Assembly (NCBI RefSeq): GCF_025562455.1
Contig: NZ_JAHPRO010000017.1
Location: 1-64,000, forward strand
Direction: 5' to 3'
DNA: 64,000 nt
From: Acinetobacter sp. WU_MDCI_Axc73
GTDB lineage: Bacteria; Pseudomonadota; Gammaproteobacteria; Pseudomonadales; Moraxellaceae
The notes beneath the pieces were generated by a model. The model searched no databases, was not told where the DNA came from, and saw nothing but the letters and a program-made list of their open reading frames with translations. The first letter of the stretch is position 1. The number at the start of each line of letters is the position of its first letter. Below, piece by piece: positions 9,011-27,728 of this stretch. The translations under genes and the position numbers were made by a program.

Positions 9011-9403
9011 ATGAATGATTATTCTGATTTAACAGTGACAGAGCTTTTAAAAGAACTACACCACTTTTTTATGATTGATACCACTGAGGATCAGCATGCT
9101 GGATTGTGGGTGCAAGAAAAAGTTAATTTTGATAAGCATTATTGGCTGGATGAGGATTATAAAGTTGAATTGATTAAAGAGACATTATCGATGCATCCGC
9201 ATCAGTCTGCAAATTATCGTATCACTTTATTTCAAGAAGGCGAGCCGATCACTTTATTGGATTATGATGGGGTCAATAAAAAAATCAAAATTTTCCGCCG
9301 TGGACAGTGGATTAATCGCTTATATAAATATTTGTATCAAAAAGAACGTTATTATCTGGAACAAATGGCTGAAAATCCTAATTTTGCAATCATTGAATAT
9401 TAG
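9011..9403 (+). CDS. Conserved hypothetical protein
   Basis: Not recognised. 130 residues, acidic and rich in aromatics, with no signal peptide or membrane span: LTVTELLKELHHFFMID, then YWLDEDYKVELIKETL and YRITLFQEGEPITLLDYDGV, ending in a basic stretch (KIKIFRRGQWINRLYKYLYQK). The pattern suggests an alpha/beta cytoplasmic protein. The ATG at 9011 is preceded by AGAGA; the frame is open further upstream to 8951, but that part overlaps a likely promoter and gives no protein-like sequence. The stop is followed at once by the first copy of the dispersed hairpin repeat. Its position before pgaB is where pgaA would be expected, but it is not PgaA. Confidence 0.65.
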   Translation: MNDYSDLTVTELLKELHHFFMIDTTEDQHAGLWVQEKVNFDKHYWLDEDYKVELIKETLSMHPHQSANYRITLFQEGEPITLLDYDGVNKKIKIFRRGQWINRLYKYLYQKERYYLEQMAENPNFAIIEY

Positions 9404-9407
9404 ATTT

Positions 9408-9485
9408 CTTGGATCATTGTTTGAACCCTCTTTTTATTTTTCTCCCATAGAGAAATAAAAGAAAGTGATGTAAGAAGTCGATTAA
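9408..9485 (+). repeat. Dispersed hairpin repeat, copy 1
   Basis: About 75 bases shared with copies at 18123-18200 and 18603-18678. Core pattern: ATCATTGTTT, a short variable step, CTTTTTATTTTTCTCC, a 3-base loop, then AGAGAAATAAAA, and a tail GATGTAAGAAGTCGATT. The centre folds into an A/T-rich hairpin. It starts five bases after the stop of the 9011 gene. Confidence 0.65.
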
Positions 9486-9874
9486 GTGGTGATATTAAAA
9501 TTTTCTCTTATTTTTAAGAAAAACCAAGTTGAGTGATTATATTTTATTGTAATTTCCTTATAAGAAAGCGGGTAGTTTTGCCGTCTTTTTTTTTGCAAAA
9601 TAATCAATTGATTTTAATAATAATGAGTGTTTTTTGTACAAAAACAAATGGTTGAATATTCACCTAAAAATTTTTTATCACTTGCAATATGACTGTAAAG
9701 TTAAGAAAAACCTACAAAAATTTTTAAGTTTGTTTTCAGATTTGCTGAGTATAACTGCTATTGTTAAAAGCCTGATGGATTTCTGTCAAAAGCAATGGAT
9801 TGTAGATAGAAAAAAGACATTTTCGATCAGACAAAGCCTTTAGAAAATAACCCGAATTGAAAGATGATATTTCT
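9486..9874. other. Intergenic region before pgaB
   Basis: About 390 bases, AT-rich. A 69-codon frame at 9634-9843 has no ribosome site and is not similar to PgaA or any family I know. The pga promoter must lie here. I cannot point to a convincing -35/-10 pair. Confidence 0.4.
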
Positions 9875-26323: not shown

Positions 26324-26617
26324 ATGAAGTCTGAATTTTATCAGGGAAAAGTTAAACAATATGATGCCAAGAAAGGTTTTGGATTTATTGGTGGCCTAGA
26401 ACAAGATATTTTTTTTCATATTTCAGATTTTCCGCTTGAAGATGGCGAGCCTAAGCGTAATGAACGCGTGAAATTTATGGTGGTCGAAAATAACGGTAAG
26501 TATAAAGCCGTGAAAATTCAGAGAGTGGTTGATCAGTCTGCAAAAGCCAAAAAATCAAGAGCTGTAGAAAATAATACTTCGATTACATCTGCATTATTAG
26601 ACAGTTTTAGAAAGTAG
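26324..26617 (+). CDS. Cold-shock-domain protein with C-terminal extension
   Basis: 97 residues. An OB-fold cold-shock domain fills 1-70, with RNP1 as KGFGFIGG and RNP2 as DIFFHISDF, so it should bind single-stranded RNA or DNA. After it comes a basic tail of about 27 residues (SAKAKKSRAVENN, then SITSALLDSFRK) that ordinary 70-residue Csp proteins lack. The gene lies 60 bases before a RelA/SpoT-domain gene on the same strand, which suggests a two-gene unit. It may be a regulator or RNA chaperone; its tail may contact a partner. Domain call sure, role open. Confidence 0.85.
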   Translation: MKSEFYQGKVKQYDAKKGFGFIGGLEQDIFFHISDFPLEDGEPKRNERVKFMVVENNGKYKAVKIQRVVDQSAKAKKSRAVENNTSITSALLDSFRK

Positions 26618-26677
26618 ATAGATTCAGTCTAAAAAAAATCAGGTAATTTTTAAATCATTTAGATATTGAGAAGAAAT

Positions 26678-27250
26678 ATGAGTGAAAATATTTTGGATAA
26701 AGTTGAATTAATGATTGGAACGATTAATAAAATTCACGCTGATTTTTCTCAGGATTATTTTGAAACGGGGCGTATCGAAAAGATCAATTTATCGAAAACG
26801 ATTGCTCGTGTACCTTATCAACATATTTCTAAATATCGTTTAAATCTACATGAAAGTATCAATGATTATCTGATTAAAAATAAAACAGGATTTTTATTGC
26901 AATATTATTATCGAGTTAAAACTTTAGAAAGTATTGATGACAAGATTAATCGATATTCACTCAATACAGATCAATATCCAGTGAATAACTGGTTAAATGA
27001 TATTTTTGGTGCAAGAATTATTTTAAATACACAGGAAGTTGAAGAAATTATTGAACTGCTGGATGGATGGCAAGAAAAATTTGGTTTAAAAAACTGGTAT
27101 TTTCGGGACAAAGATGGATATCGAGGGATACACATCTACTTTAAAAATAAATCAAATTTTTACTTCCCTTGGGAGTTACAAATTTGGGATGAAAAAGATG
27201 AACTTACTAATATTGAAAATCATGAAAAATATAAACGGACGTTTGTGTAA
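26678..27250 (+). CDS. Small alarmone synthetase-like protein (RelA/SpoT synthetase domain)
   Basis: 190 residues containing only a RelA/SpoT nucleotidyltransferase domain, which transfers pyrophosphate from ATP to GDP/GTP (pppGpp) or, in toxic relatives, to other targets. Motifs: R79-x-K81-xxx-S85-xxx-K89 in YYYRVKTLESIDDK, NDIFGARIIL (D108, R113), GYRGIHIYF (147-155), and WELQIW (E166, Q168) with NHEKYKR (H182). All catalytic positions I can place are kept, so it is probably active. No hydrolase, TGS or ACT domains, unlike RelA and SpoT. ATG at 26678 with GAGAA upstream; TTG at 26666 is an alternative. It follows a cold-shock-domain gene. No zinc-finger antitoxin of known toxSAS type is adjacent. 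Confidence 0.8.
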   Translation: MSENILDKVELMIGTINKIHADFSQDYFETGRIEKINLSKTIARVPYQHISKYRLNLHESINDYLIKNKTGFLLQYYYRVKTLESIDDKINRYSLNTDQYPVNNWLNDIFGARIILNTQEVEEIIELLDGWQEKFGLKNWYFRDKDGYRGIHIYFKNKSNFYFPWELQIWDEKDELTNIENHEKYKRTFV

Positions 27251-27284
27251 ATTTTATATATCCATCTGATATTAAATGCTGTGG

Positions 27285-27728
27285 TTAGAGCAAATTTGAA
27301 CCATTACGCATTTGTACGGGTGAAATCCGCTTGAGATGCTCAAAAGCTAATCTATAACTTTGCATATCCCACTTCCAAGCCTCAGCTATAGAATAATCTG
27401 AATTATAAGATATCCAAAGTAGATAATCCCATTCATAATTTTTAGCTGATGGGACTTTAGTGATTTTACTACCTTTTTTACCACTTGGACGTGTGCCTTT
27501 AACCTGATATTTTAGACCTTGATAAATAAAATCATGCCCTCTTTGTACACTGGTCGAATTTTGCATGATTTGGCTATAAGTAATATCATCAATACCCAGT
27601 AATTGGGCGGCATCATATTCAGATATTACTGGTGTAATAGAGGGAGCATTGCCAAATGCTTGCTCCCATTCTAATGCTATTTTGATTAAACGCTGCCGAA
27701 GAGTCTGTATATTACCCAATCGAATCAT
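27285..27728 (-). CDS. Conserved hypothetical protein, possibly PD-(D/E)XK nuclease-like
   Basis: 147 residues. A helical start ([19 protein letters not shown]), [11 protein letters not shown], then a beta-rich core [20 protein letters not shown] and [13 protein letters not shown], ending [15 protein letters not shown] and [10 protein letters not shown]. The pattern matches a widespread proteobacterial protein of unknown function that I recall but cannot name. The QVK in a beta hairpin followed by a Lys/Gly loop and a hydrophobic strand recalls the (D/E/Q)xK half-motif of restriction-type nucleases; this is inference. Its start lies 17 bases inside the 3' end of metH on the same strand, and it faces the RelA/SpoT-domain gene tail to tail with a 34-base gap. 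Confidence 0.65.

What the first reader, a model, noticed from the sequence alone, without database searches (positions are those of the whole stretch)
26324..27728. Candidate new stress or defence cassette: cold-shock-domain protein + RelA/SpoT synthetase + possible nuclease next to metH
Three small genes sit together: a Csp with an unusual 27-residue tail, 60 bases before a single-domain alarmone synthetase with its catalytic residues kept, tail to tail with a conserved unknown protein that may be PD-(D/E)XK-like. Single-domain RelA/SpoT proteins include growth-stopping toxins (toxSAS) usually paired with an antitoxin gene; the Csp could fill that place. The pairing and any defence role are inference. 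No known toxSAS antitoxin or phage gene is seen.
Basis: partly seen in the sequence, partly recalled or inferred. Interest (0 to 1): 0.6.

Follow-up and report, generated by a model that had tools for sequence, protein, structure and literature searches.

The report
Mobile solo RelA/SpoT toxin-like gene
A small enzyme gene that looks like a tRNA-damaging toxin has landed beside an ordinary cold-shock gene in an Acinetobacter genome; its relatives in other bacteria sit, without an antitoxin gene, in the slot of DNA-restriction operons where a known phage-triggered tRNA-cutting enzyme (PrrC) often sits, which suggests a second kind of last-resort phage defence.

Summary
The three genes are real and correctly placed, but they are not a cassette. 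The cold-shock gene is near-universal in the genus sample: 111 of 119 genomes match it, 12 of 119 carry the synthetase, 102 have a csp match without the synthetase, and 3 synthetase genomes have no csp match. Synthetase and P3 lie between convergent csp and metH, a site that is empty or filled differently in relatives. P3 resembles endonucleases Eco15I/NhoI, solved with methylated DNA. The synthetase belongs to a mobile, catalytically intact family nearest in fold to the tRNA pyrophosphokinase FaRel2; no recurrent antitoxin gene was found. Its sister clade lies between hsdS and hsdR of type IC restriction operons; in the ten such Acinetobacter operons found, the slot holds the synthetase in 5 and the anticodon nuclease PrrC in 5. 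In viral contigs it follows a CI-type repressor gene in 31 of 32 loci. Best reading: a latent, antitoxin-less toxSAS for phage defence, of which the window gene is an orphan copy (no hsdR match in its genome). tRNA modification, toxicity and control by restriction are untested inference. New variant of a known kind.

The parts
26678..27250 (+). Solo single-domain RelA/SpoT synthetase (SAS), 190 aa, toxSAS-like; the core of the finding
   Evidence: PF04607 34.5 bits, phrog_4012 1.2e-65; nearest fold FaRel2 Z 14.5; active-site residues invariant in 65 of 65; dN/dS 0.046-0.080 for the window copy against five relatives
26324..26617 (+). Cold-shock-domain protein, 97 aa: near-universal gene of the genus, border of the insertion site, probably no part of the system
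   Evidence: PF00313 47.5 bits; 111 of 119 genus genomes match
27285..27728 (-). P3: small PD-(D/E)XK-type nuclease, resembling Eco15I/NhoI; accessory
   Evidence: PADLOC mREase_II 5.8e-5; Foldseek 9.4e-5 to the Eco15I N-terminal domain; 1 of 119 genus genomes, also in A. sedimenti L068
27712..31449 (-). metH, the other border of the insertion site
   Evidence: ORF; convergent csp-metH pair with no gene between in G036 and G019

Best explanation
The synthetase is an orphan copy of a mobile, antitoxin-less toxSAS family that serves phage defence. SHOWN by sequence: it is a single synthetase domain whose active-site residues are kept under purifying selection; its fold, N-terminal helix included, is nearest to FaRel2; close copies occur in several phyla and beside many different genes; its sister clade sits in the hsdS-hsdR slot of type IC restriction operons, where PrrC sits in others; phages carry it right behind CI-like repressor genes; csp and metH are borders of its insertion site here. 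[quoted passage not shown] because it is probably made together with CI in lysogens and with Hsd proteins in restriction operons, and no antitoxin gene recurs beside it, it must be latent and switched on by infection: in hsd operons perhaps when restriction is blocked (the PrrC logic), in orphans such as this one by a trigger of its own or a signal in trans.
For: Fold: model pLDDT 85.5; VIA Z 14.5 to FaRel2 8pu4_C over model residues 4-184, against 9.1 for RelQ (47-187) and 6.8 for CapRel (27-190); profile search E 5.8e-7 FaRel2 against 5.6e-4 YwaC. The site aligned with FaRel2 R29, whose change weakens toxicity and tRNA binding (PMC11559606, passages), is R/K/H in 65 of 65. Slot: hsdS within 500 bp upstream and/or hsdR within 500 bp downstream, whole or remnant, in 30 of 80 genome loci, all 30 in one clade of the tree that is close to the window's clade. 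In Acinetobacter type IC operons the slot holds SAS in 5 of 10 and PrrC in 5 of 10; PADLOC PrrC 431-483 bits in 8 of 8 slot proteins tested, three of them from operons ordered hsdS-prrC-SAS-hsdR. The hsdR is EcoR124I type, 1818 bits. Phage position: 31 of 32 viral loci behind a CI-like repressor. No recurrent partner gene in what was listed. Distant relatives (30-31%) in the two phages inspected are followed by GepA-like ORFs, the DUF4065 type that PMC8832971 (passages) reports as antitoxin of toxSAS PhRel2.
Against: No activity or toxicity has been measured. Many copies sit alone between housekeeping genes (parE-parC, ksgA, rfb-type and purine-phosphorylase neighbours), as a harmless alarmone enzyme might. 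The hsd link is essentially one clade (plus L115), so it may go back to one capture. In a class-wide sample 0 of 8 type IC operons carried SAS. The window genome has no hsdR match, so the PrrC logic cannot apply in cis here. K28 of FaRel2 aligns with a serine in most rows. A GTP/ppGpp enzyme is not excluded by the residues checked. dS is above 1 in many of the pairs, so those dN/dS values are rough.
Confidence: 0.5

Rival explanations
1. Ordinary small alarmone synthetase: it makes (p)ppGpp to tune growth, and its mobility and slots are those of any useful small gene.
For: Solo gene without antitoxin; present in prophage repressor operons and between housekeeping genes; active-site residues all kept; RelQ/RelP also match the fold.
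Against: Fold and sequence nearer to FaRel2 than to RelQ/RelP; NCBIfam GTP diphosphokinase YjbM only 22 bits against a cut-off of 320; the recurrent hsdS-hsdR and post-CI positions are typical of defence cargo; the own genome holds other RelA_SpoT proteins, among them frames of 771 and 706 aa.
Confidence: 0.22
2. (pp)pApp-type toxSAS (like FaRel or Tas1): it empties the ATP pool when triggered.
For: Same superfamily; the acceptor was not determined.
Against: Nearest solved fold is the tRNA-modifying FaRel2 (Z 14.5) rather than Tas1 (Z 5.6); basic residue at the FaRel2 R29 site.
Confidence: 0.1
3. One reading: csp is the antitoxin or regulator of the synthetase, with P3 as a nuclease arm.
For: Five of six members of the window's subclade lie beside csp; in A. 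sedimenti csp and SAS are 8 bases apart, with P3 and metH in the same order.
Against: csp mostly occurs without SAS (102 of 119); 3 of 12 SAS genomes have no csp match; order reversed in G014; P3 in 1 of 119.
Confidence: 0.05
4. Decaying selfish cargo without present function in this genome.
For: Broken by an insertion sequence in G115; only 2 of 398 genomes in the phylum sample carry it, the own one included.
Against: dN/dS 0.046-0.080 for the window copy against five relatives, open frame and invariant active site.
Confidence: 0.13

Closest known systems
FaRel2 / PhRel2 toxSAS (tRNA 3'-CCA pyrophosphokinases of toxin-antitoxin pairs)
   Same: Single synthetase domain, active-site residues, N-terminal helix, nearest fold and nearest solved sequence
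   Different: No antitoxin gene found beside it in the loci examined; about 24% identity to FaRel2; substrate untested; no PhRel2 reference sequence was compared
PrrC anticodon nuclease of type IC R-M operons (EcoprrI)
   Same: Same slot between hsdS and hsdR of EcoR124I-type operons in the sister clade; presumed tRNA target; no antitoxin gene
   Different: Unrelated protein; would modify the 3' end rather than cut the anticodon; the window copy is not linked to hsd; control by R-M untested
CapRel (fused toxSAS-antitoxin defence protein)
   Same: toxSAS-type domain, one-gene defence logic
   Different: No C-terminal antitoxin domain: the protein ends with the synthetase fold (190 aa); Z only 6.8
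Phrann Gp29 (PhRel, prophage superinfection exclusion; from PMC8832971 passages)
   Same: toxSAS gene carried by a temperate phage
   Different: Here the gene follows a CI-like repressor directly; no defence test done
Eco15I / NhoI endonucleases (for P3)
   Same: Foldseek 9.4e-5 to 6.6e-4; D66, Q75, K77, W100, D101 and E116 invariant in 12 rows
   Different: 147 aa, TM-scores of about 0.5 only; activity and methylation dependence untested

Membership tests
toxSAS toxin-antitoxin module | Single RelA/SpoT synthetase domain with intact active-site residues | tested here: met
   PF04607 over its cut-off, 190 aa; residues invariant in 65 of 65
toxSAS toxin-antitoxin module | Fold of the toxSYNTH type (FaRel2) rather than RelQ/RelP | tested here: met
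   Z 14.5 against 9.1; among the RelA/SpoT rows only FaRel2 is aligned from the N-terminal helix on
toxSAS toxin-antitoxin module | Cognate antitoxin gene next to it or fused | tested here: not met
   No recurrent partner among the families and clusters listed; two GepA-type queries gave a single hit at E 0.44. So not filed as a TA module. The lists were capped at 25, and an RNA antitoxin was not tested
toxSAS toxin-antitoxin module | Toxic on expression; pyrophosphorylates tRNA-CCA or makes (pp)pApp | not testable with these tools
   bench work needed
Housekeeping SAS (RelQ/RelP, YjbM) | NCBIfam GTP diphosphokinase YjbM equivalog score | tested here: not met
   22 bits against a cut-off of 320
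PrrC-like guardian of type IC R-M | Gene between hsdS and hsdR of a type IC operon | tested here: inconclusive
   Met by the sister clade (of 80 loci, 23 beside a long hsdS and/or hsdR frame and 7 beside scraps only); not met by the window gene, whose genome has no hsdR match
PrrC-like guardian of type IC R-M | Silenced by the R-M complex, released by anti-restriction | not testable with these tools
   none
PrrC (the protein family) | ABC-ATPase plus anticodon-nuclease domain | tested here: not met
   RelA/SpoT protein; no PrrC match in PADLOC
csp-SAS cassette | Co-occurrence across genomes | tested here: not met
   4 of 12 SAS genomes have csp alongside; 102 of 119 genomes have a csp match without SAS
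PD-(D/E)XK endonuclease of the Eco15I/NhoI type (P3) | PD-(D/E)XK core with the Eco15I/NhoI fold | tested here: met
   PADLOC mREase_II 5.8e-5; modest TM-scores

The most novel reading that the evidence does not exclude
Type IC restriction operons carry two interchangeable tRNA-disabling last-resort effectors in one slot: PrrC, which cuts the anticodon, or this toxSAS, which caps the 3'-CCA end. The Hsd complex itself is the antitoxin, and anti-restriction by a phage releases the toxin. The same enzyme escaped from the operon (leaving hsdS and hsdR scraps beside some orphan copies) and works elsewhere behind phage CI repressors and as lone genes such as the window's.
Probability: 0.3. Interest if true: 0.85.

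Novelty: new variant of a known kind. Interest (0 to 1): 0.6.

Why it matters
It would show that the PrrC strategy (restriction backed by tRNA sabotage when restriction is disarmed) is a general slot with swappable effectors, and that toxSAS enzymes can be held in check without a dedicated antitoxin. It is directly testable in laboratory E. coli. By inference, phage enzymes that repair PrrC cuts should not undo a 3'-CCA modification, which would explain why a cell gains from having both (three operons carry both).

Tried and rejected
Rejected: csp as antitoxin. Rejected: a common protein antitoxin beside SAS. Up to two genes of 75 aa or more on each side of the 52 loci then counted as non-hsd were scanned with Pfam: 101 upstream members matched 122 families, 100 downstream members 107, of which 25 each are listed. 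The commonest upstream were DUF1232 (6 of 101), Adenyl_transf (5) and Fic (5), downstream topoisomerase IV A (10 of 100) and PNP_UDP_1 (6); I read these as lineage-specific host genes, but rarer families were not shown. An all-against-all comparison of neighbour ORFs of 30 aa or more gave hsd, parE/parC, Fic-like and spurious antisense clusters among the 25 largest shown. Rejected: retron Se72 effector for csp (29.2 bits against 82). Led nowhere: NCBIfam on the slot proteins (0 families for the eight PrrC-like ones); phylum-wide survey (2 of 398).

Results against my reading: the class sample gave 0 SAS in 8 type IC operons of 75% identity or more, with PrrC matches in 6 of 8 (several only partly visible at the end of the fetched stretch, one split by a transposase-like frame); two further hits at 51% identity showed neither. 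On the tree the hsd label needs at least 13 changes of state, and the bootstrap had not settled.

Rows dropped: 3 of 80 genome loci had no SAS ORF in the non-overlapping list (L073, L095, L115; the last two proved hsd-linked), so rest on 77 loci less 24 hsd loci and one more without usable rows; L088 and L096 gave no upstream, L106 and L107 no downstream neighbour. The tree used all 80 plus the window and 10 others. In one search hits overlapping SAS (L107, L113, L114) were set aside as artefacts of an over-long hsdR frame. Two of the seven scraps are weakly backed (L117 one query, L084 two). The script printed 30 of 32; L218 was missed by a fixed coordinate although its CI frame ends at 2717 before a SAS match at 2719, hence 31; L238 is the exception.

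Paper searches: toxSAS + restriction-modification 5 papers, small alarmone synthetase + type I restriction 0, hsdR + alarmone synthetase 7, toxSAS + PrrC 1, GTP pyrophosphokinase + hsdS 4. By title and abstract start none of these describes a synthetase in an hsd operon; only open-licence PMC papers are held, so subscription papers (such as the original toxSAS survey, recalled) were not seen. One search asked for three of four terms on toxSAS and prophage repressors and listed 10 of 1,147; nothing relevant in the titles.

Full report
OBSERVATION. The csp-SAS gap is 60 bases without a terminator-like site in the scan, so co-transcription is possible. SAS has PF04607 over its cut-off; its best match in the libraries searched is phrog_4012, a phage protein family of unknown function, 1.2e-65.

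CSP IS NOT THE PARTNER. In a 119-genome sample of the window's genus (Acinetobacter by the named closest hits), csp has a match in 111 and SAS in 12. 102 genomes have a csp match and no SAS; G032, G076 and G091 have SAS and no csp match. Four of the 111 matches are weak (about 1e-4). Within the stretches fetched round SAS in the other 11 genomes (12 loci, 7.5-18 kb), csp appears in three: G094 and G115 (csp before SAS) and G014 (csp after SAS). The csp tail is of one type across the genus (29 of 30 loci printed). In G036 and G019 csp and metH are convergent with 39 and 56 bases between them: the empty site. In other relatives the same site holds a DUF559-like gene (G047), a small nuclease-like gene (G097) or a Fic-like gene (G078) (these names are by eye, but a DUF559 protein beside SAS in L067 was identified by Pfam). 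SAS and P3 are therefore cargo at a csp-metH site. A. sedimenti (L068) has the same csp-SAS-P3-metH order with csp and SAS 8 bases apart, and 5 of the 6 rows of the window's subclade touch csp.

P3. Found in 1 of 119 genus genomes, in A. sedimenti (82% identical) and, at 55% identity, on a Segatella copri plasmid; weak matches (23-33%) in 15 other genomes of the 369 in a class sample. Twelve aligned rows keep D66, Q75, K77, W100, D101 and E116. The model (pLDDT 80.4) matches Eco15I and NhoI, solved with methylated target DNA (PADLOC hint). TM-scores are about 0.5 and rmsd is large, so the fold class is credible and the exact function is not settled.

SAS AS A FAMILY. The genome scan gave 169 relatives, of which the best 80 were kept, at 60-91% identity, with record titles from Pseudomonadota, Bacillota, cyanobacteria, Fibrobacter-type and other MAGs. 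In the genus sample 12 of 119 genomes have it, in the phylum sample 2 of 398, own included: rare, patchy, mobile. Among ten close copies dN/dS runs from 0.025 to 0.138 (one pair undefined; dS above 1 in many pairs). Active-site residues are invariant in 65 of 65.

FOLD. AlphaFold2 gives pLDDT 85.5. By VIA-align the nearest chains are FaRel2 (Z 14.5, 2.8 A over 158 residues, model 4-184), then RelQ (9.1, from residue 47), SAS2/RelP (7.2-7.8), CapRel (6.8), Tas1 (5.6). FaRel2 is also first by Foldseek (4.6e-8) and by profile (5.8e-7). FaRel2 pyrophosphorylates tRNA-CCA ends, and K28A or R29A changes in its acceptor-stem patch weaken its toxicity (PMC11559606, passages). In the profile alignment R29 falls on window K40, which is R 36, K 18, H 11 of 65; K28 falls on S39 (S 58, K 6, A 1). 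This supports a tRNA substrate but does not prove it.

NO ANTITOXIN GENE SEEN. Neighbours differ from locus to locus; neither Pfam on 201 neighbours (25 families listed each) nor clustering (25 clusters shown) shows a recurrent small partner. Relatives at 30-31% identity in Geobacillus phage GBSV1 and Paenibacillus phage Callan (two inspected of 16 phage records below 60% identity) are followed within a few bases by ORFs of 249-251 aa, annotated GepA in GBSV1; PMC8832971 (passages) names a DUF4065 protein, the domain found in GepA, as the PhRel2 antitoxin. I ran no family search on those two ORFs. The close family thus seems to have dropped, or never had, such a partner.

THE PrrC SLOT. In G013, G024, G091, G109 and G073 SAS lies between hsdS and hsdR. 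The hsdR is EcoR124I type (1818 bits; that EcoR124I is type IC is recalled). Among genome-scan loci, 30 of 80 have hsdS within 500 bp upstream and/or hsdR within 500 bp downstream on the same strand: 23 beside a long hsdS and/or hsdR frame, 7 beside scraps only (hsdS tails of 23-41 residues in L084, L086, L100, L106, L110, L117; an hsdR head in L088). None of the 10 extra phage, plasmid and Moraxella-type loci has one. L115 and L138 have hsd genes further off. The tree puts all of these but L115 in one clade of 45 rows (98/93); the window's six-row clade joins it at 100/96, with two clostridial rows in between. So the hsd link is mainly one lineage, with the gene found both inside and outside the operon (at least 13 changes); the clade includes Acinetobacter, beta- and gammaproteobacteria, cyanobacteria and MAGs filed under Bacteroidia and Helicobacter (MAG labels may be wrong).

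The decisive comparison: the genus sample has ten full-length hsdR at 75% identity or more. Five have SAS in the slot, and the other five (G010, G047, G087, G064, G102) have in its place a 373-432 aa protein that PADLOC calls PrrC at 431-481 bits. None of these ten has both, but L090, L103 and L112 read hsdM - (another gene in two) - hsdS - prrC - SAS - hsdR. PrrC is reported as invariably linked to type Ic R-M, silenced by it and switched on by a phage anti-restriction peptide (PMC3874168 and PMC2610378, passages). PMC3506569 (passages) argues that immunity systems hold linked toxins in check. Outside the genus, a class sample of 369 genomes gave 8 such operons: PrrC matches in 6, SAS in none, and a RhuM-like gene (name recalled) in 6. 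So SAS is, in that sample, a minority occupant of a slot where PrrC prevails.

PHAGES. Of 26 phage records, 10 (Streptococcus phages and satellites) carry the close form; in Javan35 and Javan53 one base separates it from the CI-like repressor gene; in satellite Javan292 another gene lies between. In 31 of 32 viral loci a CI-like frame ends directly before SAS, with the CI proteins 28-100% identical to the Javan35 one (many contigs are near copies of one another). A gene behind cI is expected to be expressed in the lysogen, so SAS should be harmless until something triggers it: the main argument for latency, and an inference.

THE WINDOW COPY. Its genome has no hsdR match at E 0.001 or better (hsdM was not searched), and three other RelA_SpoT matches: frames of 771 and 357 aa, and one of 706 aa below the cut-off. 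It is an orphan: if it is a defence enzyme, its trigger is its own or acts in trans.

VERDICT. Observation confirmed; cassette rejected; the synthetase is a solo toxSAS-like gene of a mobile family with strong positional ties to defence. Mechanism (tRNA-CCA pyrophosphorylation, latency, release) is inferred, probability about 0.5 for the general form and 0.3 for the strong form in which R-M is the antitoxin.

Noticed in passing
window 27712-27728; L068:9026-9042: P3 starts inside the end of metH (17-base overlap) in both the window and A. sedimenti, so the nuclease-like gene may be translationally coupled to metH.
   Followed up: partly
L083:2052-2657, L094, L099, L104, L109, L118, L120: A 201-aa Fic protein (NCBIfam NmFic, over its cut-off for L083; the others by eye) recurs between hsdM and hsdS of the same type IC operons: a second cargo slot.
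   Followed up: partly
L182, L183, L184, L186, L187, L188: RhuM-like genes (name recalled) of 333-361 aa sit directly before hsdR in 6 of 8 type IC operons outside the genus.
   Followed up: no
L101 and L104, just after SAS: A duplicated head of hsdR (22 and 50 residues) follows SAS, with a complete hsdR further downstream, as if cargo had been inserted with a copy of the hsdR start.
   Followed up: no
L026:8713-10029 (G115): SAS is split by a 248-aa transposase-like frame and lacks its end; another insertion-sequence-like frame lies beside it in the csp-metH site.
   Followed up: no
L121, L122, L127, L139, L141, L143, L145: In streptococci the solo SAS lies before parC, in several next to a gyrB/parE-type gene: a repeated accessory-gene site.
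   Followed up: no
L061-L063, L064: Relatives on Streptococcus and Lactococcus plasmids, one about 1.6 kb from an AcrIIA9-family gene (L062), and a truncated copy next to a transposase-like frame on a Vibrio plasmid (L064).
   Followed up: no
L023 (G076), 9393-9803: A 136-aa S24-peptidase-like frame (CI/LexA type, by eye) directly follows SAS in a thiL-pgpA-like interval, recalling the phage CI-SAS pair.
   Followed up: no
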